This document shows, one piece after another, positions 1,930-11,407 of a stretch of DNA of 21,416 bases. Numbering within the stretch: position 1 is the first letter of the stretch; every line of letters begins with the position of its first letter. The stretch covers positions 1 to 21,416 of IMG/VR virus record IMGVR_UViG_3300046535_001476; one strand, written 5' to 3'. The position numbers were made by a program, and so were the translations under genes. Source of the DNA: a virus. Under the pieces are notes generated by a model. It had not been told where the DNA came from and did not search any database. It saw only the letters and a program-made list of their open reading frames with translations.

Positions 1930-2053
1930 TTTCTCGAATGTCGTATTCGACGGCCCGCGTAAGCGCCGCCGGATGCGGTCGTTGTTTGTGCCGGCCGGGC
2001 TCGTGCTGTGGGTAGCCGCGATCGGCTGGGTGCTGGCGGCGCTGGCGCTGTGA
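1919..2053 (+). CDS. 44-aa single-span membrane peptide
   Basis: The ATG follows GAGAAGAGGGG, a strong ribosome binding site. The peptide has a basic middle (PRKRRRMR) followed by one clear transmembrane helix (about residues 24-43) running to the end, so the N-terminus probably stays in the cytoplasm. Its TGA overlaps the ATG of the exonuclease gene (TGATG). Function is unknown; small membrane peptides of this kind are common in phage early operons. Confidence 0.6.
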   Translation: MPVSFSNVVFDGPRKRRRMRSLFVPAGLVLWVAAIGWVLAALAL

Positions 2054-2955
2054 TGATCCGCGAAAGCTGGCAGATCACCTCGATCGGCGAGTGGCTGGAG
2101 CGTCGGCAACACCACATCACCGCGAGCCGGATCGGCGCGTTATTCGACGAGCATCAGTATCTCACCCGCGAGGGGCTGGCGGCGGAATTGCGCGGCGAGA
2201 GCGCCGAGGTGCCGAATGCCAGCATGCGCGCCGGCAACATCCTCGAGGGCGGTTTCCCGGCGGCGGTGCGGCTCGACGGCAAGCCGTGGGCGCTGAGCAA
2301 GGCTGACACCTATCACTGGTTGCCGGAGCACCGGCTCGGCGCCACCCCGGACTTCTGGATCGACGATCCGCCCGGCGGGCTCTTCCAGGCCAAGACTGCC
2401 AGCACCGAGCAGTGGCAGCGATGGCGCGGGCACCCGCCGCTGATGTATCTGCTCCAGACCCTGACCGAGCTGATCGTCACCGGGCGCTCGTGGGGCGTGC
2501 TGGGAGTGATGATCCGAGCCGGCGGCTATCCTATCCATTATTACGACGTGGCCCGCCACGAGGCTGCGGAGCGGCGCATACTGGATGCTGCGGCGGCCTG
2601 GTGGCGCGCCTTCGATGCGGGTGAGTTTCCGGCGGCGGTGCCGAGCGCGGAGATCGCCGAGATGCTCGACGACGGCAGCCACCTCGACCTTTCCGATAAC
2701 AATTACCTTTGCTCCGGCCTGCTGCCCGAGCGCGAGAAATTAAAGGCAGAGCTTTCGGCCGGCGAAAAACGCGTGTCCGAGATCGACAGCATCATCAAGG
2801 CAGCGATGGGCAACGCGTCGAGTGCGTGGATACCTGGTTACAACATCACGTTCCGCTCGCAGAGCCGCAAGGAAGTGGTCATTCCGGCCAAGACGTTCCG
2901 CGTCCTGCGGGTGCGCGCCGCTGCCGAGGAGGAGGGAGCCGATGCCAGCCAATGA
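2053..2955 (+). CDS. YqaJ-type phage exonuclease
   Basis: A 300-aa nuclease that probably degrades one strand of duplex DNA to make single-stranded ends for recombination. The N-terminal part has the YqaJ signature ITASRIGALF (residues 22-31). Candidate active-site positions of the PD-(D/E)xK fold follow: Glu65 (GNILEGG), Asp100 (GATPDFW) and Lys114 (LFQAKT). The acidic residue usually found two positions before the lysine is Gln112 here, which is unusual. A C-terminal helical region (about 240-275) is probably a coiled coil. The ATG overlaps the stop of the membrane-peptide gene, and the last 14 bp overlap the RecT-like gene. The pairing of YqaJ nuclease with RecT is well known in phages and supports both calls. 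Confidence 0.85.
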   Translation: MIRESWQITSIGEWLERRQHHITASRIGALFDEHQYLTREGLAAELRGESAEVPNASMRAGNILEGGFPAAVRLDGKPWALSKADTYHWLPEHRLGATPDFWIDDPPGGLFQAKTASTEQWQRWRGHPPLMYLLQTLTELIVTGRSWGVLGVMIRAGGYPIHYYDVARHEAAERRILDAAAAWWRAFDAGEFPAAVPSAEIAEMLDDGSHLDLSDNNYLCSGLLPEREKLKAELSAGEKRVSEIDSIIKAAMGNASSAWIPGYNITFRSQSRKEVVIPAKTFRVLRVRAAAEEEGADASQ

Positions 2956-4057
2956 ATTAGCGCCGCTGCCGTTCGCGGACATGCAGGCGTTGGCGCTGTC
3001 GATCGCGCGCAGCGGCATGTTCGGTATTAAGACACCGGACCAGGCTCTCGTTTTAATGAGCATCGCCCAAGCAGAGGGGCGCCACCCGGCGCTCGCGGCG
3101 CGCGATTATCATGTGATCAACGGCTCGCCGAGCAAGAAGGCCGAGGCGATGCTGCGCGACTTCCTGACCGGCGGCGGCCGGGTGACCTGGCACGAGCTGA
3201 CCGACGACGCTGCCGAGGCAACGTTCTCGCATCCGCAAGGCGGCGAAGCCAAGATCCGCTGGGACGCCGCCCGCGTCGCCAGGGCTCAGCTCAGCAATCC
3301 CATGCACCGCAAGTTCCCACGGCAGATGCTGCGCTCGCGCGTGGTGTCGGAAGGTGTCCGCACCGTGTGGCCGATGGCTACGGGTGGCATGATGGCGCCG
3401 GAAGAGGCGGCCGAGATCCGGCGCGAGGAGCGCGAGCCGATCGACGTGACGCCGGCAACCCCGATCGACACCGCGGCCGACCTCGACGCGTTTGCAGAGG
3501 GCGACGTGATCCCCGACGACACCGGATTATTCAACGCCGCCCATTCGGCAGCAATCAGCGGCGCGGTGGCGTTTCGGAGCTTCTGGGCGGCGCTCAATCC
3601 GACGCAGAGGGGCGTCTTGCGATCAGGACTTCCCGGCTATCAGGAAATCGCCGCTGCGGCCGACAACGAGCGGGCGCGGGACGAAGACCCTTTCGGCCTG
3701 CCACCGCTGCCAAGCGGCGAGGTTACTGCCGCGCATGCCGGGAGCGGAAAGGATGTTACCTCCATGGGCGACTCCCCTATCCCATCCGATATTGGTGACG
3801 CCGAAGCGCCCGCGGTGCCGTTCGCCGCGGCGGTGCGCGCGCTGGTGCCGGTGGCCGGGGACGACGGCGAGCCGAACTGGCGGGCGTGGTCCGAGGCGTT
3901 TGTGGCGCTGGTCGAGCAGGCGACGCCGGCCGAGGCGCGGAAATGCCGGCTCAGCGATTTGCCGCATTATGGCAAGTGTCGCACTGAGGATGGCGATGCT
4001 GCGGCGGTCGTGCAGGCCGCGGTGAATGCCAAGAGCAAGGAGGCGCCGCCGCCGTGA
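2942..4057 (+). CDS. RecT-family single-strand annealing protein
   Basis: A 371-aa protein that should bind single-stranded DNA and anneal complementary strands, working with the exonuclease encoded just upstream. The ATG at 2942 follows GAGGAGGGA; longer in-frame extensions lack such a site and would overlap the exonuclease gene widely. Residues about 10-165 match the RecT/Bet core: an AxAEGxHPALAARDYHVINGSPSKK region, then NPMHRKFPRQMLRSRVVSEGV and the MAPEEAAEI segment. The C-terminal half is Pro/Ala/Asp-rich, ends in a compact helical module (about 290-360), and is longer than in typical family members. The TGA overlaps a GTG that opens a frame into the first 18-bp array. Confidence 0.85.
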   Translation: MPANELAPLPFADMQALALSIARSGMFGIKTPDQALVLMSIAQAEGRHPALAARDYHVINGSPSKKAEAMLRDFLTGGGRVTWHELTDDAAEATFSHPQGGEAKIRWDAARVARAQLSNPMHRKFPRQMLRSRVVSEGVRTVWPMATGGMMAPEEAAEIRREEREPIDVTPATPIDTAADLDAFAEGDVIPDDTGLFNAAHSAAISGAVAFRSFWAALNPTQRGVLRSGLPGYQEIAAAADNERARDEDPFGLPPLPSGEVTAAHAGSGKDVTSMGDSPIPSDIGDAEAPAVPFAAAVRALVPVAGDDGEPNWRAWSEAFVALVEQATPAEARKCRLSDLPHYGKCRTEDGDAAAVVQAAVNAKSKEAPPP

Positions 4058-4076
4058 CGACGCAGCCGCGCTGCGC

Positions 4077-4280
4077 GAGAGTGCCGAACTTGGGGAGCGA
4101 GCCGAGCCGTAGGAGGGTGCCGTGCCGTAGGAGCGAGCCGGGCCTCCGGAGAGTACCGGGCGAAACGAGCGAGCCGCTAATCACGAGGGTGCCGAAATCC
4201 GGGAGCGAGCCGCGGCCATGGAGCGTGCCGAAGATACGGAGCGAGCCGAAAGTTCAGAGAGTACCGAGAAAAAGGAGCGC
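4077..4280. repeat. Array 1 of 18-bp alternating repeats (11 units)
   Basis: Eleven consecutive 18-bp units without a single indel. Each is a 10-bp core plus 8 variable bases. Core types alternate strictly: GAGnGTGCCG or GAGnGTACCG (4077, 4113, 4149, 4185, 4221, 4257) and GAGCGAGCCG (4095, 4131, 4167, 4203, 4239). A degenerate twelfth core, GAGCGCC, starts at 4275, and array 2 ends in the same way. AAGGAG at the array end doubles as the ribosome binding site of the gene at 4283. Read on + from the GTG at 4054, the array encodes SEPxxxRVPxxx repeats, but that frame then runs out of phase through the next gene. On the - strand it encodes GSLxxxGTLxxx, interrupted by a TGA in the spacer at 4249-4256. 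Function is unknown. Confidence 0.95.
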
Positions 4281-4282
4281 CT

Positions 4283-5218
4283 ATGGAAACGACGCACACC
4301 GAGGATCAATGGCTGGACCCCGTCGCCAGACTCGGCCGCGATCTGCGCGTCGCCGCCGCAACGCTGAGCGATGCCGAGGCGCGCTTCCTCGTCGACGCGT
4401 TTTATATGATGCAGGACGATCGCAAGCGTGCCCGCAATCAGGAGCGGGCGCTCGGCGAAGCTTCGGAACCGCACCTCGTGATCAACTGGCTCGCAGAGCA
4501 ATCGCGGGTGCTGGAAACGCAGATCCTGGTCGCGCTCGATCGCTACACCAGCCAGCACCAGATCGGCGACTGGATGCGGGGAGTATACGGTATCGGCCCC
4601 GTGTTATCGGCCGGTCTGCTGGCGAATATCTATATGGGACATTGGTGCGCTGTCTGCCGCGGGCGTACCGGGGATGAGTGCCGCGAGCGGCAGGAAGACA
4701 AGAAGCGCAAGCTGGCGGCGCACGAGTGGCAGCCGGTGGTGAGCTGCCCCACCGCCGGCACGATCTGGGCTTTCGCCGGGATTGCCGGCATCGATCAGAA
4801 GCCATGGGAGCGTGGCACCAAACGACCGTGGAATGCGCGACTGAAGACGCTCGCCTGGAAGATCGGCGACTGTTTCGTTAAGTTCAGTAACAACGAGCAA
4901 TGCATCTACGGGAAGCTCTACCGGCAGCGGAAAGAGATCGAGGTTGCCCGCAACGAAGCCGGCGTGTTTGCGCCGATCGCGGCCGAGAGGATCGCGCGCG
5001 ACAAGGAGCGCAAGCGGCGGTCGGCGGAGGCGCCGTACCATGACGCCGGCAAGCTGTCTCCGGGACACATCGACCTGCGGGCGCGGCGGTGGGCGGTGAA
5101 GATATTTCTCAGCCATTTGCATCAGGAGTGGTTTCGCCGCCAGTTCGGGACGGAGCCGCCCGCGCCGTTCCCGATCGCCATACTGGGACACGCACACATG
5201 ATCCCGCCGCCGCATTAG
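4283..5218 (+). CDS. Helix-hairpin-helix protein resembling IS110 transposase C-terminus
   Basis: A 311-aa protein flanked on both sides by 18-bp repeat arrays. Residues 98-113 (MRGVYGIGPVLSAGLL) form a helix-hairpin-helix DNA-binding motif like that of the IS116/IS110/IS902 C-terminal domain. The following GTIWAFAGI and KRPWNARLKTLAWKIG segments also fit that domain. Between them is a cysteine-containing insert (C122, C125, C133, C155) that may bind zinc. The C-terminus has a KIFLSHLHQEW helix and ends in a proline cluster. The N-terminal DEDD nuclease domain of true IS110 transposases is absent, so transposase activity is unlikely; DNA or junction binding is the best inference. The ATG is preceded by AAGGAG from array 1. 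Proteins of this kind occur in other phages, with unknown function. Confidence 0.6.
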   Translation: METTHTEDQWLDPVARLGRDLRVAAATLSDAEARFLVDAFYMMQDDRKRARNQERALGEASEPHLVINWLAEQSRVLETQILVALDRYTSQHQIGDWMRGVYGIGPVLSAGLLANIYMGHWCAVCRGRTGDECRERQEDKKRKLAAHEWQPVVSCPTAGTIWAFAGIAGIDQKPWERGTKRPWNARLKTLAWKIGDCFVKFSNNEQCIYGKLYRQRKEIEVARNEAGVFAPIAAERIARDKERKRRSAEAPYHDAGKLSPGHIDLRARRWAVKIFLSHLHQEWFRRQFGTEPPAPFPIAILGHAHMIPPPH

Positions 5219-5640
5219 CCGCTATGCGCGAGTGTGCCGTAACGGGAGAGCGAGCCGCGGCGTTGGAGTGTGCCGACGAACTGGAGCGAGCCGCGTTTTC
5301 GGAGAGTGCCGCGCCTGAAGAGCGAGCCGTAACAGCGAAGAGTGCCGAAGAAATCGAGCGAGCCGGGAAAAGCGAGAGTGCCGGATGTGGAAAGCGAGCC
5401 GCTTTCGCAGAGAGTGCCGTCGAAGCAGAGCGAGCCGATCTCGCGGAGAGTACCGGACCGAGGGAGCGAGCCGAGCCGTAGGAGAGTGCCGTGCCGTAGG
5501 AGCGAGCCGGAAGGGTGGAGAGTGCCGGACTCGCGGAGCGAGCCGCTAGGCTTGAGTGTGCCGTATCTCGAGAGCGAGCCGAGCCGCGCGAGTGGACCGA
5601 GTGAATTGAGCGAGCCGGGGTTTAGGAGCGTACCGAGCAC
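5215..5640 (-). CDS. Possible repeat protein (GSLxxxGTLxxx) antisense over array 2
   Basis: A 141-codon frame on the - strand that coincides almost exactly with array 2. It encodes about 23 hexapeptides alternating Gly-Ser-Leu-xxx and Gly-Thr-Leu-xxx. All core changes in the array except one (Thr to Pro at 5590-5599) are silent in this frame: the Thr codons are ACT, ACA, ACC or ACG, Gly is GGC or GGT, and Leu is CTC or CTT. This suggests past or present selection on a protein, perhaps a beta-solenoid. Against it, the frame begins with GTG and no ribosome binding site, has no visible promoter, and runs antisense to an operon. The Ser codon never varies in the whole family. Treat it as a candidate only. 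Confidence 0.3.
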   Translation of the reverse strand: MLGTLLNPGSLNSLGPLARLGSLSRYGTLKPSGSLRESGTLHPSGSLLRHGTLLRLGSLPRSGTLREIGSLCFDGTLCESGSLSTSGTLAFPGSLDFFGTLRCYGSLFRRGTLRKRGSLQFVGTLQRRGSLSRYGTLAHSG

Positions 5641-5650
5641 CGCGAGCGCC
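5230..5650. repeat. Array 2 of 18-bp alternating repeats (23 units)
   Basis: Twenty-three consecutive 18-bp units in perfect register (first core 5230, last full core 5626), plus a degenerate GAGCGCC at 5644. The two core types alternate exactly as in array 1. Twelve cores are of the GAGnGTGCCG type, with GAGTGGACCG at 5590 the most divergent. Eleven are GAGCGAGCCG, with AAGCGAGCCG at 5392. The 8-bp spacers are mostly unique, but spacers AGCCGTAG and TGCCGTAG occur consecutively in both arrays (4105-4130 and 5474-5499), which points to shared ancestry or exchange between arrays. The array fills the gap between the helix-hairpin-helix gene and the excisionase-like gene. The + frame is open from a GTG at 5342 straight into the latter gene. 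Confidence 0.95.
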
Positions 5651-5680
5651 CAGCAACAGGAAGCAAATAGGAGAGCGCCG

Positions 5681-6079
5681 ATGGCTGTCCCCCCAGCCGT
5701 TGATATTCAGCCGCTGATGTACGAACACGAGGCAGCCCGCATGATCGGCGTGCCGGCGCGCGCGCTGCGGTCCGAGCGCACCGCTGGCCGCATCCAATAT
5801 CGCAAAGTCGCCGGCCGGATCATGTACCGCGCCGACGATCTGAAAAACTGGCAGGAGAACATTGCATGCCCCGTCGCGCCGAAGGACCGAAGCTTAGACC
5901 CAATCCGAAGCGGGGCGGGCTATACTACATCTTCTGGACTGAGCGAGGACGGGGCCGCGAGCGTAGCACGGGCACTCGCGACCACCGCCAGGCTGCGGCA
6001 ATCTTTACGGAGTGGCTCGGCGGCCAAGCCCGACCGGTCGAATGGTCCGGGCCAGCTCGTGCCTCTGAGACGCGAATAG
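5681..6079 (+). CDS. Excisionase-like HTH protein
   Basis: A 132-aa protein. Residues about 12-58 are a winged-helix/MerR-type HTH of the kind found in excisionases and AlpA-like regulators: MYEHEAARMIGVPARALRSE followed by GRIMYRADDLKNWQE. The ATG at 5681 has AGGAG upstream. The same frame stays open upstream through the 18-bp array to a GTG at 5342, so a longer form with SEP/RVP repeats is possible. The last 214 bp overlap the integrase gene in another frame, reminiscent of the lambda xis/int overlap; the C-terminal 70 residues are Ser/Arg-rich and low in pattern. The likely role is directing the integrase toward excision, or regulating its gene. Confidence 0.6.
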   Translation: MAVPPAVDIQPLMYEHEAARMIGVPARALRSERTAGRIQYRKVAGRIMYRADDLKNWQENIACPVAPKDRSLDPIRSGAGYTTSSGLSEDGAASVARALATTARLRQSLRSGSAAKPDRSNGPGQLVPLRRE

Positions 6080-6915
6080 CGGATGTCCTGGCGCTCTATG
6101 CCACCGAGCACGTCGCCAGCGACAAGGTGGCGTCGAAAGCCACAGCCACCTACTCGATCGATACATTGCTGCGCTGGTGGGGCGGGCGCACCTGCGACTA
6201 TGTCACGCCGGAGACGTGCGAAGCTTATGTGCGGGACCGGGTTGCAGCCGGCTGGAAGGACAGCACTGCTGCCCGAGAGCTGACGGTGCTGCGGGCGGCA
6301 CTCACCCGCGCGCACAAACGCGGCAAGATGGTGGAATTGCCCGCCGTTGAAATACCGTCGCGGCCGCCTGGCAGGGACCGCTGGCTGACGCGATCGGAAG
6401 CGGCTCGGCTGCTGTGGGAGAGCCGGCGCGACCCGCAGGCGCGCGGGCATTTGCCGTTGTTTATCCTGCTCGCGTTGGCGACAGGCGCGCGCTCCGGTGC
6501 ACTGTTCGATCTGCAATGGACGCAGGTCGATTTCACCGGCAACACGATCAATTTCAACCCGCCGGGCCGCCGACAAACGGCCAAAACCCGGCCGATCATT
6601 GCTATCCCGCGGCGGCTGCGCTGGTTCCTGCTGGCGGCGCATGCCCGAGCATCCTCTGCGCATGTGCTTGCCTTCAACGGCAAGCAGATCAAGAGCGTCA
6701 AGAAGTCATTCCGGGCGGCACGCGATCGTGCCGGGCTTGGGCCGGAGGTGGTGCCGTATACGCTGCGGCACAGCGCCGGCACCTGGCTGGCGCAGGCCGG
6801 CGTCGACCTGTGGACGATTGCCGGGTGGCTCGGGCACAGCCAGCAGAAGACGACCGAGCTGTACGCACACCACCATCCGAGCTTTCTGGCGGCGGCGCGC
6901 AAGGTGATGGATTGA
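5866..6915 (+). CDS. int: Tyrosine recombinase, phage integrase
   Basis: A 349-aa site-specific recombinase that should insert the phage DNA into the host chromosome and excise it. The ATG follows AGGAG. The N-terminal arm-binding domain (about 10-55) contains GGLYYIFWTERGRGRERSTGT. A SAM-like core-binding domain spans about 68-150, and the catalytic domain about 172-345. Active-site residues: Arg209 (ATGARSGAL), Lys240 (AKTRP), Arg301 (YTLRHSAG), His324 (WLGHS) and nucleophile Tyr333 (ELYAHHHP). The first position of the usual HxxR motif is Tyr298 instead of His, a replacement I believe also occurs in other alphaproteobacterial integrases. Candidate arm sites lie about 220 bp downstream of the stop codon. 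The enzyme looks intact. Confidence 0.92.
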   Translation: MPRRAEGPKLRPNPKRGGLYYIFWTERGRGRERSTGTRDHRQAAAIFTEWLGGQARPVEWSGPARASETRIADVLALYATEHVASDKVASKATATYSIDTLLRWWGGRTCDYVTPETCEAYVRDRVAAGWKDSTAARELTVLRAALTRAHKRGKMVELPAVEIPSRPPGRDRWLTRSEAARLLWESRRDPQARGHLPLFILLALATGARSGALFDLQWTQVDFTGNTINFNPPGRRQTAKTRPIIAIPRRLRWFLLAAHARASSAHVLAFNGKQIKSVKKSFRAARDRAGLGPEVVPYTLRHSAGTWLAQAGVDLWTIAGWLGHSQQKTTELYAHHHPSFLAAARKVMD

Positions 6916-6924
6916 GGCTCTGCT

Positions 6925-7152
6925 ATGACCGAAGACGAAGCCAAAGCCGAAATCGAGAAAGCCGGAGAAATTATTCTGGATAGTGTTGCCCACCTTCCAC
7001 CTCCAATCGCTGCGGTCGCAATGGTTGGTGCTCTGGCTGCCCAGGCCACACTCGCAAATTTTAATCTTGAGAATGTTATAAACGCCCTCCGATCCGCCTG
7101 GGCTGACATCCACCGGAACGAAGCGGGAAACGTCCGAATAACGTCCGAATAA
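6925..7152 (+). CDS. Small hypothetical protein after the integrase
   Basis: A 75-aa protein starting 9 bp after the integrase stop. The N-terminus is acidic and helical (MTEDEAKAEIEKAGEIILD), then comes a hydrophobic stretch (about residues 25-47, PPPIAAVAMVGALAAQATLA) that may be a membrane helix. No family is recognised. The last codons and the stop lie inside two tandem copies of GTCCGAATAA, so the end of the gene doubles as a possible recombinase binding region. The ribosome binding site is weak (GAGG, rather far from the ATG). Confidence 0.5.
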   Translation: MTEDEAKAEIEKAGEIILDSVAHLPPPIAAVAMVGALAAQATLANFNLENVINALRSAWADIHRNEAGNVRITSE

Positions 7153-7315
7153 CCCCCGTATTTGTCCGAATAATGCCGTCAAACCCCGCCGCCATCGTCA
7201 ACAAAATCAACGGCTTATAGGGGGAACCCGTCCCTTCACACGGGAGTAGGCACGGGAGATTTGGTGAATGTTTTCAGTAAGTTACCGAGGAGCGTCCGAA
7301 GAACCGTCCGAATAA
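7132..7315. other. Candidate attP region with integrase arm-type repeats
   Basis: GTCCGAATAA occurs at 7132-7141, 7143-7152, 7164-7173 and 7306-7315, with a variant GTCCGAAGAA at 7294-7303. The first three are spaced 11 and 21 bp apart, close to whole helical turns, and the last two are 12 bp apart. Two clusters of short direct repeats around about 120 bp of sequence just downstream of an integrase gene is the layout of a tyrosine-recombinase attP, with arm sites on both sides of a core. The enclosed stretch contains an inverted repeat CCCGT...ACGGG (7227-7231 and 7240-7244) and a direct repeat CACGGGAG (7239-7246 and 7251-7258), which are core candidates. The exact crossover site cannot be told from this window. 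Confidence 0.5.
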
Positions 7316-7329
7316 CGTTACGAGAGTCA
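7302..7329 (+). repeat. 28-bp direct repeat, copy 1
   Basis: This 28-bp segment contains CCGTCCGAATAACGTTACG and is repeated at 7585-7612 with a single difference (position 22, A or C). The copies are 283 bp apart and enclose the small gene at 7363-7557. The GTCCGAATAA core is the same as in the putative integrase arm sites. Confidence 0.9.
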
Positions 7330-7362
7330 ACGGGCGAAAGACAATCTATGGAGGAACATCAG

Positions 7363-7557
7363 ATGAAACGCTATGGGATGACGCGGGAGCACCTGCCCGG
7401 TATCGCCGAATTGCACAAGATTGCTGATCAGGTTGCCGACAAGATTCAGAACCTGTTCATACAGCAATTGCCGATGATGACTGCGACCCAGAAAGGGAGC
7501 ATTCGGAATGCTGTCCTCGATGCTTTGCTGGCCGCGACACAGGAGGACCAGCCGTAA
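7363..7557 (+). CDS. Small hypothetical protein between 28-bp repeats
   Basis: A 64-aa product starting at the ATG at 7363, which has a very strong ribosome binding site (GGAGGA, 7 bp upstream); an in-frame ATG at 7348 lacks one. The protein is helical, with the segment KIADQVADKIQNLF followed by LPMMTATQKGSIRNAVLDALLAA. No family is recognised. The gene and its leader are flanked by 28-bp direct repeats, so it may be a cassette gained or duplicated through recombination. Confidence 0.6.
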   Translation: MKRYGMTREHLPGIAELHKIADQVADKIQNLFIQQLPMMTATQKGSIRNAVLDALLAATQEDQP

Positions 7558-8079: not shown

Positions 8080-8400
8080 ATGCAGACACAACCGAGCGCG
8101 ATGGTCGAGCGTGTAGCGCGCGCAATCGATGCCGATACCGGGATCTGGATGCGCACCAATAAGGGTGAGCGGTTGCCCTTCGAGATCATCGACCGCTCTG
8201 GCGAGCCGATTCTTTTGTCTGCCTGGGGTAGCCTTGAGGAAGCCAAAGCGGCGTGCGCGCGCACGGATCTTCTACGCCGCGCGGAAGCCGCCATCGCCGC
8301 GATGCGCGAGCCGACCGAGGCGATGATCTACATCGGCGAAGGCGTCGAGTTTCGCGGTGAGATATGGCGAGAAATGATTGACGCAGCTTTGGGCGCGTAG
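8080..8400 (+). CDS. Paralogue of the MREPTEAM-module protein
   Basis: A 106-aa protein starting with MQTQPSAMVERVARAI, which aligns with residues 61 onward of the preceding protein. Both share the helix AAIxAMREPTEAM and the ending WRxMIDxxxGA. The middle (residues about 20-60) is unrelated between the two. The ATG follows AGAGGG, which lies in the partial tRNA copy. The last ten bases lie inside the tRNA-Val gene, whose bases 8-10 provide the TAG stop codon. The function is unknown; a tandem duplication is the simplest origin. Confidence 0.65.
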   Translation: MQTQPSAMVERVARAIDADTGIWMRTNKGERLPFEIIDRSGEPILLSAWGSLEEAKAACARTDLLRRAEAAIAAMREPTEAMIYIGEGVEFRGEIWREMIDAALGA

Positions 8401-8465
8401 CTCAGCGGCAGAGCACCGGCCTCACATGCCGGGGGTCGCAGGTTCAATCCCTGCCGCGCCCACCA
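8391..8465 (+). tRNA. tRNA-Val (anticodon CAC)
   Basis: A complete cloverleaf of 75 bases. Acceptor GGGCGCG pairs with CGCGCCC, D-stem GCTC with GAGC, anticodon stem CCGGC with GCCGG around the loop CTCACAT (anticodon CAC, reading GTG), and T-stem GCAGG with CCTGC around TTCAATC. The 3' CCA is encoded (8463-8465). It reads the abundant GTG codon of these GC-rich genes. Since phage genes lie on both sides, it is probably phage-borne, but an old integration target cannot be excluded. Confidence 0.95.
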
Positions 8466-9259: not shown

Positions 9260-11407
9260 CTACGGCCCGAGCAGCCCATTCATACGCGATGGGATATTCG
9301 CCTGCGTCGTTGCCGCCAGAAGCCCGCTTAGCGGCGCCAGATACGGACGAGGTGGAGCCGGCGGGTTTGCCCCTAAAAGCCTATCAATGATCATCTGCCG
9401 CTGTGCCGGGTTGGTGGCCATCAGCATCTCGGCGGCCGAGGCTTGCACCTGCGGGTTCGGCCCGAACATCCGGTCAGCCATCCGGCTCACAAGGTTTTTG
9501 CCCAATCCAATGCCCAGAGTCCCTGCGGCAGCCGGCAGACCTCCCGTACCAAGGGCGATAGCGGTAGGCATCACGAGATCCGTTGCAGATGGCGGACCCT
9601 GATCAGCCGCCCGCCGCTCGGCGGTTTGCGGGCCTCCCATCACGTCAAATTTGGTGCGGAACATGGTCCGCTCATTGTGGACGGTCTGCATGAACTGGTT
9701 GAAATCGGCGTCATTGTCGAACAGGTGGCGCACGCGATTCTCCGCACCTTTGCTGCCGGTGATGCCAAGGCTTTCATCCCCGCCATAACCCCTGTTGTCG
9801 ACGTTTTCCCGCAGCTTCTGGGCCGCGCCCATCCGATAATACTGCAGATCGGTTGGCGACATGCCTTTGACCATCCCGCCGACCTCATCCGGCGTGTGCG
9901 AGAGGAAAGCATAGCCGTCCTTCATTACTCCTTGCGAGTGGCTCGGTCCGCCCCAGGCCGCGCGAGCGGCAGCGTAATCGGGATTAAGACTGTCCAGCTC
10001 ATCAAGATAAGCTCGTTGCACGCCATAAAGAGCCCGACCTTCGTCGGTGAGTTTCCCGGTGGTGGGATCGCGCGCGCTCGCGATCTGCTGATCAAGCCCG
10101 CGCTTGGCGGCATCGAGTGTGCGCATGTTCATACGCCCGCCGAAATGCGGCACACCCGCAGCGTCATAGGTCACCGAGTAATCGGCCGGATTGAATGGCA
10201 GGCCCTGCTCGAGCGCCTCGCGGCGATGTTGATCCATGCCGAATTTCAAACCCGCCTGCAAATCAGGATCGTCGGTGAACTGTTTTAGGCGATCCGAATA
10301 AATCGGCCGGGTATCGTCCATGGCAGTCTGGTAAAGCGGTGCCGAGTTGGCGCGCTTCTCGGCATCGAGCGCGGCTTGCGCTTCCACCACATTGCGCGTC
10401 GGCGAGATGTTCTGATCAATCAGCGTATGGAGCCGATCGCCGGCGCCTTCATCGCGCCTGACGAGCGCGCCGCCGGGCATCAGCGGACCACCCGAGGGGC
10501 CGCCGATGATCTCGCTTGCAGGCGTATCAGAGCGGTAGAGGGTGCCGGTTAACCGCTGCACTGGCTTGCCGCCGACATCAGCGAGAGTTAGCGGTTCGTT
10601 GGTGCTTCCGAGCCGCTGCCCCATCGTTTCGAGATTGGGGCCGCCCGCCTGGGCCGTCTTGTCGGTGGCGCTCTGGATCAGCCGCAGAGCCTGCTCGTCG
10701 ATCTTATCGGCTGCCGTCCGGGCGGGCGCCTCGCCCGGCAGCGACGGTAGAACCGATCGTTCCAGCCACGGCGATAGCAAACCGCCAAGCCGCATGAAGG
10801 GTGGCAGGGCACCGCCCAGGACGGCTCCGAGCAGGCCGCCGTACCCCGCGCCCCGCGCCGCCTCGCCAACGGAAGCCGCATTGTCCGCCGCCCCGGTGAC
10901 CCCGCCAAATAAAGTGCCGAGCCCAGCACTGCGCAGCGTCTGCGCGATCAGCGATGGAGCTTCCACCATAGGAACCCCGGCGCCACCGCCCCCAAGGCCG
11001 AGGCCGCCAACCAGGTTGAGCAACGTGTTTGCCCATGGATTGGCTCCCGCATAGGATTCGCGTCCTCGCTGCATCTCGCGCGAAGCCTGCGGGTAATCGA
11101 AGGGTTGGCCGCCGAATACCCAGCGGTTGGCGGCCAACCCGAGGGCTTGCGCCGGGTCCGACAGTCCGAGCGTGAAACCGTGAGCGACAGCGTCTTTAGG
11201 CCCGTAGGGCGCGGCCGGCAGGATGTAATCGCCACGAGCCGATGTGTCGGTTGCCGAGGGCGCGCTGCGGTTTTGGTAGCGCGCCCACGGGTCGTCGTCG
11301 GCAGGTGTGTCAGGGCGGAGAGCGCCTCCGACTGCCAGCCCGCCGGGTGCTGCGTTGGGGTTACGGGCTTGGTATCGAGCCCAAGGATCATCGGGAGTGT
11401 CTGCCAT
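9260..11407 (-). CDS. Large internal virion or ejection protein
   Basis: A 715-aa protein, the last gene of the leftward late operon. The N-terminus has two copies of DPWARYQ (residues 7-13 and 39-45) in disordered surroundings. Residues about 125-205 are Gly/Ala-rich and hydrophobic (LLNLVGGLGLGGGG, YGGLLGAVLGGALP), and a second hydrophobic stretch lies near 625-650. The middle and end are helical, with several coiled-coil-like parts. This profile and the position next to a lysozyme-bearing protein fit ejection proteins of podoviruses, which leave the capsid and help form a channel through the cell envelope (compare T7 gp15/gp16). Direct similarity to a named protein is not seen. The ATG overlaps the stop of the upstream gene (TGATG). 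Confidence 0.6.
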   Translation of the reverse strand: MADTPDDPWARYQARNPNAAPGGLAVGGALRPDTPADDDPWARYQNRSAPSATDTSARGDYILPAAPYGPKDAVAHGFTLGLSDPAQALGLAANRWVFGGQPFDYPQASREMQRGRESYAGANPWANTLLNLVGGLGLGGGGAGVPMVEAPSLIAQTLRSAGLGTLFGGVTGAADNAASVGEAARGAGYGGLLGAVLGGALPPFMRLGGLLSPWLERSVLPSLPGEAPARTAADKIDEQALRLIQSATDKTAQAGGPNLETMGQRLGSTNEPLTLADVGGKPVQRLTGTLYRSDTPASEIIGGPSGGPLMPGGALVRRDEGAGDRLHTLIDQNISPTRNVVEAQAALDAEKRANSAPLYQTAMDDTRPIYSDRLKQFTDDPDLQAGLKFGMDQHRREALEQGLPFNPADYSVTYDAAGVPHFGGRMNMRTLDAAKRGLDQQIASARDPTTGKLTDEGRALYGVQRAYLDELDSLNPDYAAARAAWGGPSHSQGVMKDGYAFLSHTPDEVGGMVKGMSPTDLQYYRMGAAQKLRENVDNRGYGGDESLGITGSKGAENRVRHLFDNDADFNQFMQTVHNERTMFRTKFDVMGGPQTAERRAADQGPPSATDLVMPTAIALGTGGLPAAAGTLGIGLGKNLVSRMADRMFGPNPQVQASAAEMLMATNPAQRQMIIDRLLGANPPAPPRPYLAPLSGLLAATTQANIPSRMNGLLGP

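What the first reader, a model, noticed from the sequence alone, without database searches (positions are those of the whole stretch)
4077..5650. Two strict 18-bp alternating arrays flanking a helix-hairpin-helix gene
34 units in two arrays keep an exact 18-bp period with no indel. A conserved 10-bp core is followed by 8 free bases, and the two core types (GAGnGTGCCG and GAGCGAGCCG) alternate without exception, giving a 36-bp super-period. Two consecutive spacers are shared by both arrays, and both end in the same degenerate GAGCGCC. The arrays enclose exactly one gene, whose product has a DNA-binding motif. This is neither CRISPR nor an ordinary minisatellite. Possible roles: binding platform for the enclosed protein, iteron-like replication site (lambda ori also uses 18-bp iterons, but these cores are GC-rich), or repeat-protein coding sequence.
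Basis: partly seen in the sequence, partly recalled or inferred. Interest (0 to 1): 0.9.

Follow-up and report, generated by a model that had tools for sequence, protein, structure and literature searches.

The report
Phage TIGR-Tas RNA-guided targeting locus
The two repeat arrays are guide-RNA stores of a recently described CRISPR-like system called TIGR-Tas, here in a soil phage, and the gene between them makes the guide-carrying protein; the system is a known kind, but its guides appear to be replaced much faster than the protein changes.

Summary
In detail: 34 ten-bp cores, strict 18-bp period, two alternating core types, one enclosed gene. It is a TIGR-Tas system (Faure et al., Science 2025, PMC12045711), not an iteron or protein-binding platform. 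GAGCG^AGCCG is the edge repeat and GAGnGTRCCG the loop repeat. Each array starts with the half-edge AGCCG and ends with the half-edge GAGCG, giving exactly 6 x 36 and 12 x 36 bp, i.e. 18 predicted 36-nt tigRNAs with 8+8-nt spacers. The enclosed 311-aa protein matches NCBIfam TIGR_Tas_endo (172.7 bits, cut-off 100) and the solved TasR and TasH structures. It has no N-terminal nuclease, so it is TasA-type. Arrays and tas co-occur across viral contigs. Edge bases 4 and 7 covary as a base pair, and the box C base covaries between edge and loop, as the published RNP predicts. Predicted targets were not found in the window, own contigs, or 1.3 Mb of related phage DNA. One useful new result: between this phage and its closest relative (Tas 96% identical) only 1 of 17 guides is recognisable, against about 14 expected from synonymous-site divergence. 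New member of a known kind.

The parts
4064..4279 (+). TIGR array 1: six 36-bp tigRNA units, AGCCG-spacerA(8)-GAGnGTRCCG-spacerB(8)-GAGCG
4064..4068 (+). 5'-truncated edge repeat (AGCCG) that opens array 1
   Evidence: same half found at array starts across the family (mean 3.88 of 5 matches, against 1.35 for the other half)
4275..4279 (+). 3'-truncated edge repeat (GAGCG) that closes array 1; GGAG at 4274-4277 is positioned as the Shine-Dalgarno of tas
   Evidence: SD role is inference from position
4283..5218 (+). tas gene, 311-aa TasA-type Nop-domain protein without nuclease domain
5217..5648 (+). TIGR array 2: twelve 36-bp tigRNA units; its first half-edge AGCCG overlaps the tas stop codon TAG (5216-5218)
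4100..4135 (+). tigRNA 2 of array 1 (AGCCGTAG / TGCCGTAG), guide duplicated in array 2
5469..5504 (+). tigRNA 8 of array 2 (AGCCGTAG / TGCCGTAG), the duplicate guide
5681..6079 (+). downstream ORF with HTH_17 excisionase-like domain (context; not part of the TIGR system itself)
5866..6915 (+). tyrosine integrase (context)

Best explanation
This is a dual-repeat TIGR-Tas locus of the TasA type carried by a temperate soil phage. The two arrays are read as one same-strand transcript with tas and cut in the middle of each edge repeat (GAGCG^AGCCG) into 36-nt tigRNAs. A dimer of the Nop-domain protein binds each tigRNA. Spacer A pairs with one DNA strand and spacer B with the other, so a target is predicted to be a 16-bp site reading spacerA followed by revcomp(spacerB), with a 0-2 bp gap. 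With no nuclease domain, the complex most likely bends and blocks the target DNA rather than cutting it, probably to silence competing mobile DNA. Shown here: array anatomy, family membership, absence of a nuclease domain, RNA-type covariation, guide turnover. Inferred from the published TasA/TasR/TasH work: processing, pairing, DNA binding. Inferred without direct evidence: the biological role.
For: NCBIfam NF052498 TIGR_Tas_endo: 172.7 bits against a cut-off of 100, E 9.9e-51, and all 53 relatives match. Profile search of solved structures: TasR 9mty 4.9e-25, TasH 21kl 1.5e-13, IS621 1.3e-5. AlphaFold2 model (pLDDT 84): TasH Z 16.8, TasR Z 15.6, IS621 Z 11.5, Nop5 of a box C/D RNP Z 6.3; the aligned part starts at residue 26-31 for TasH and TasR, leaving no room for a nuclease. 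Arrays are exact multiples of 36 bp with the half-edges the paper describes. Spacers are nearly unconstrained and the cores nearly invariant over 1,119 windows. Edge positions 4/7 covary C-G, U-G, U-A (odds ratio 20, p 5e-23), and the box C last base matches between edge and loop in 190 of 199 arrays with a G or A majority in both. Array and gene co-occur.
Against: No terminator-like site follows array 2, while published arrays usually end with one. No target was found, so the role is untested. Expression and processing cannot be seen from sequence. Covariation tests are not corrected for relatedness.
Confidence: 0.92

Rival explanations
1. The same TIGR-TasA locus, but it serves the phage's own lysogeny: guides direct TasA to bend att or promoter DNA and help the neighbouring integrase/excisionase (a role suggested in the TIGR-Tas paper).
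For: In this window array 2 runs without a detected terminator into an excisionase-like ORF and a tyrosine integrase.
Against: No guide has a target in the window above shuffled pairs. Own-contig hits equal shuffles across all loci. No gene family with a recognisable integrase is a conserved neighbour of tas. Rapid guide turnover does not suit a fixed att site.
Confidence: 0.1
2. DNA binding platform or iteron: the 10-bp cores are protein binding sites on duplex DNA and the enclosed protein (or another) coats them.
For: Conserved cores at strict spacing with free spacers.
Against: Half-edges at exactly the tigRNA cut point, edge 4/7 base-pair covariation with G-U intermediates, and a guide-RNA-binding protein family. 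Unique, fast-replaced spacers are not expected of a platform.
Confidence: 0.03
3. Repeat-protein coding sequence.
For: The 18-bp period is a multiple of three, and one frame across array 1 is open (ORF 4054-4677).
Against: Arrays are almost free of gene calls across 157 arrays (mean 3.8% covered). In the window, stops occur in spacers in candidate frames (e.g. CCGTAG, CCGTAA).
Confidence: 0.01

Closest known systems
TIGR-TasA, dual-repeat type (e.g. Flavonifractor plautii FpTIGR), Faure et al. 2025, PMC12045711
   Same: Solo Nop-domain protein beside arrays of alternating edge and loop repeats; 36-bp unit; half-edges at both ends; arrays up- and downstream of tas; phage context
   Different: Edge GAGCGAGCCG and loop GAGnGTRCCG; box C is CCG where the paper's TasR arrays have CCA; 8-nt instead of 9-nt spacers; no terminator detected; array 1 supplies the likely ribosome-binding site of tas; cysteine-containing insertion of about 40 residues in Tas
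TIGR-TasH (Salicola phage CGphi29, SpTIGR; TasH structures PDB 21kl, 9vzx, 9w02-9w04)
   Same: Best structural match; SpTIGR also has 8+8-nt spacers
   Different: TasH has an N-terminal HNH nuclease; the window protein has only about 26 residues before the shared fold
TIGR-TasR (Thermoproteota TaTIGR; PDB 9mty)
   Same: Best sequence match among solved structures; box C/D arrangement; extra edge base pair
   Different: TasR has an N-terminal RuvC nuclease and 9-nt spacers
IS110/IS621 RNA-guided transposases
   Same: Shared C-terminal Nop-like (Transposase_20) domain
   Different: No DEDD RuvC domain here; an array instead of a single bridge RNA

Membership tests
TIGR-Tas, dual-repeat arrays | Two distinct alternating 8-12-nt repeats separated by about 9-nt (8-12) spacers | tested here: met
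   10-nt edge and loop, 8-nt spacers, strict alternation in the window; 1454 AB and 1412 BA against 69 AA and 30 BB steps over the viral loci
TIGR-Tas, dual-repeat arrays | 36-nt unit with cut in mid edge; [quoted passage not shown]
   Arrays are 216 and 432 bp, AGCCG at the start and GAGCG at the end; same trend over 211 arrays. Actual cutting not tested
TIGR-Tas, dual-repeat arrays | Adjacent Nop-domain Tas protein | tested here: met
TIGR-Tas, dual-repeat arrays | Box C/D motifs shared by edge and loop and covarying; extra edge pair supported by covariation | tested here: met
   (not corrected for relatedness); L109 ends in CCA in both repeats, L106 mostly so
TIGR-Tas, dual-repeat arrays | Rho-independent terminator after the array (typical, not universal) | tested here: not met
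   No terminator-like site in 3900-7400 by simple scan; the paper calls it typical, so not treated as defining
TIGR-Tas, dual-repeat arrays | Array transcribed and processed to 36-nt RNA bound by Tas, guiding tandem-spacer DNA binding | not testable with these tools
   needs small-RNA sequencing and binding assays
TasA subtype | Nop domain alone, no HNH or RuvC | tested here: met
   Structural alignment to TasH and TasR runs from residue 26-31 to 311; no nuclease-domain family hit in Pfam, PHROGs or NCBIfam beyond the Tas model itself
IS110 transposase | N-terminal DEDD RuvC domain plus single bridge RNA | tested here: not met
   Alignment to IS621 covers only its residues 125-321; arrays instead of a bridge RNA
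CRISPR-Cas | One repeat of about 25-40 nt, long spacers, cas genes | tested here: not met
   10-nt alternating repeats, 8-nt spacers; no PADLOC hit among the four proteins scanned

The most novel reading that the evidence does not exclude
Phage TIGR arrays swap whole guides by an active process (recombination with a circulating guide pool or an unknown acquisition route) on a timescale shorter than synonymous drift in tas, so the guides track changing targets as CRISPR spacers do, although TIGR loci carry no known adaptation gene.
Probability: 0.45. Interest if true: 0.75.

Novelty: new member of a known kind. Interest (0 to 1): 0.45.

Why it matters
TIGR-Tas was described in 2025 with two stated gaps: natural targets, and how arrays gain or change guides. 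This family gives about 1,700 distinct predicted guides in one repeat type, with closely related pairs of loci. That lets guide turnover be measured, and it gives a first negative result on self-targeting by phage TasA guides.

Tried and rejected
Edge = A core: rejected, because the half-repeats at array ends are halves of B; a first target search covered both assignments and found no enrichment. Self-targets in the window (one 2-mismatch hit, within the range of 0-3 for shuffles) and in own contigs (0 exact, 3 against 2.7 at one mismatch, 47 against 44.6 at two). Targets in 1.34 Mb non-redundant related phage DNA (no excess over shuffles or wrong-geometry controls). Two of six guides of the KBS 96 prophage against its own host genome (none). 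A guide shared by otherwise unlike phages, scanned over all viral contigs: 38 stretches against 46 for a swapped control. Palindromic or complementary spacer pairs: no clear excess. Conserved neighbour genes of tas: none, apart from a ParB-like ORF in five loci. Named phage records: no tblastn match to the Tas protein. Exact array pattern in 396 genomes from the phylum of G001: none.

Full report
What is there. The window is an IMG/VR virus record of 21,416 bases.

The arrays are longer than reported and are whole multiples of 36. Before the first core of each array, at the right spacing, stands AGCCG (4064 and 5217); after the last core stands GAGCG (4275 and 5644). These are the two halves of the B core, GAGCG^AGCCG. 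Array 1 is 216 bp (6 x 36) and array 2 is 432 bp (12 x 36), and every unit reads AGCCG - 8 nt - GAGnGTRCCG - 8 nt - GAGCG, with three single-base departures in array 2. The same half-repeats occur over 211 arrays in related loci: at 5' ends 3.88 of 5 bases match AGCCG against 1.35 for the other half, and at 3' ends 3.82 match GAGCG against 1.24.

Packing. The final half-edge of array 1 supplies GGAG at 4274-4277, five bases before the tas start codon, and the first half-edge of array 2 begins inside the tas stop codon. No terminator-like site was found between 3900 and 7400. Arrays, tas, an excisionase-like ORF and the integrase therefore probably share a transcript (inference).

A widespread family. 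The A-N8-B pattern occurs in 97 stretches of viral contigs. In these, 18-bp steps dominate, alternation is nearly perfect (1454 AB and 1412 BA against 69 AA and 30 BB), arrays lie between genes on the genes' own strand (140 to 2), and spacers are nearly free while cores are nearly invariant.

The protein. Pfam gives nothing for the window protein itself, PHROGs says 'transposase', and 47 of 53 relatives weakly match Transposase_20 of IS110. NCBIfam's TIGR_Tas_endo matches it at 172.7 bits (cut-off 100) and matches all 53 relatives. The best solved relatives are TasR and TasH. The AlphaFold2 model aligns with TasH (Z 16.8), TasR (15.6), IS621 (11.5) and the archaeal box C/D protein Nop5 (6.3). 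For TasH and TasR the alignment runs from residue 26-31 to 311, so there is no room for an HNH or RuvC domain: this is the TasA form. The NCBIfam name says endonuclease, but this protein has no nuclease part.

Comparison with the literature. The TIGR-Tas paper (PMC12045711; [quoted passage not shown] All the sequence-level features were tested and met except the typical terminator. In edges lying between two loops, positions 4 and 7 are C-G 1088, U-G 61, U-A 33, C-A 29 (odds ratio 20), and the last box C base agrees between edge and loop in 190 of 199 arrays with a G or A majority in both. Neither test is corrected for relatedness.

Link between gene and arrays. Of 68 loci found by the gene alone with enough flank, 63 show 36-bp periodicity beside it; three of the rest have a 37-bp period, and the other two (L181, L189) still show alternating arrays in the core scan. 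Of 91 array-bearing pieces, 66 hold tas, nearly always within 200 bp. Many of the other 25 are contig ends or other pieces of contigs that do hold tas.

Targets. From the published geometry (8-nt 3' overhangs) I derived that a target strand reads spacerA + revcomp(spacerB), gap 0-2. No excess of such sites was found in the window, in own contigs, or in 1.34 Mb of related phage DNA, against shuffled pairs and wrong geometries. A guide shared by otherwise unlike phages was at chance level in all viral contigs. The guides therefore do not detectably aim at their own phage or near relatives as sampled; targets in hosts or unsampled elements remain open.

Guide turnover. The closest relative, L011, has a Tas 96% identical in protein, 93.5% in DNA, and third-position divergence 0.138. 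Drift at that rate would leave about 14 of 17 guides recognisable (3 or fewer mismatches in 16); one is (p about 7e-12). Even at a divergence of 0.2 about 10 would be expected (p about 5e-6); at 0.3 the test is only marginal (p 0.054). Three other close pairs show the same, and one pair (L041/L045, 6 of 8) does not differ from drift. Retained guides are partly out of order, and single spacers are shared with new partners more often than in unrelated pairs (16 of 222 against 39 of 1999). Some identical guides occur in otherwise unlike arrays. This points to replacement and exchange of guide units rather than point mutation. Caveats: the second array of L011 runs to the contig end and may be incomplete, tas and arrays may recombine apart, and some non-coding DNA may evolve faster than third positions.

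How it most likely works. Transcription gives a precursor; TasA dimers and a host RNase yield 36-nt tigRNAs; each RNP opens and bends a matching 16-bp site without cutting. The likely use is silencing of competing mobile DNA. These steps rest on the published systems and inference; no target is in hand.

Verdict. A new member of a known kind. Its value is the densely sampled guide repertoire and the turnover result.

Noticed in passing
window 4283-5218, residues 117-156: Insertion of about 40 residues with CxxC and further cysteines (WCAVCRGRTGDEC...SC), seen also in Tas of L011, L010, L001, L015 and L097 but not in most relatives; possibly metal-binding.
   Followed up: partly
L014, L020, L044, L092; L006, L048, L134: Identical 16-nt guide pairs in arrays that otherwise share almost no guides (e.g. 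CGAGCTTG/TGATAGCC; GGTCTTCG/ATGACTGA), suggesting exchange or retained guides.
   Followed up: partly
L106 5072 and 6374; window 4112 and 5481: In both loci one guide is present in the array upstream and in the array downstream of tas.
   Followed up: no
L138 8357-9139: ParB-like ORF just downstream of tas in five loci, probably the TasParB of the TIGR-Tas paper (identified by eye only).
   Followed up: no
L109 (Acidobacteriaceae KBS 96), 9977-10997: TIGR-Tas locus in a sequenced genome, with CCA in place of CCG in both repeats and six 36-bp units; a possible laboratory model.
   Followed up: partly
L027, L035, L069, L070: Related pieces with a TIGR array but no tas in the stretch fetched; may be arrays far from tas or orphan arrays.
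   Followed up: no
window 5681-6079 and 5866-6915: The excisionase-like ORF runs on for about 210 bases over the start of the integrase gene in another frame.
   Followed up: no
window 2053-4057: YqaJ/RecE-like exonuclease and RecT-like annealing protein genes just upstream of array 1.
   Followed up: no
window 8391-8465: tRNA-Val(CAC) gene downstream of the integrase; phage-borne or part of an attachment site.
   Followed up: no
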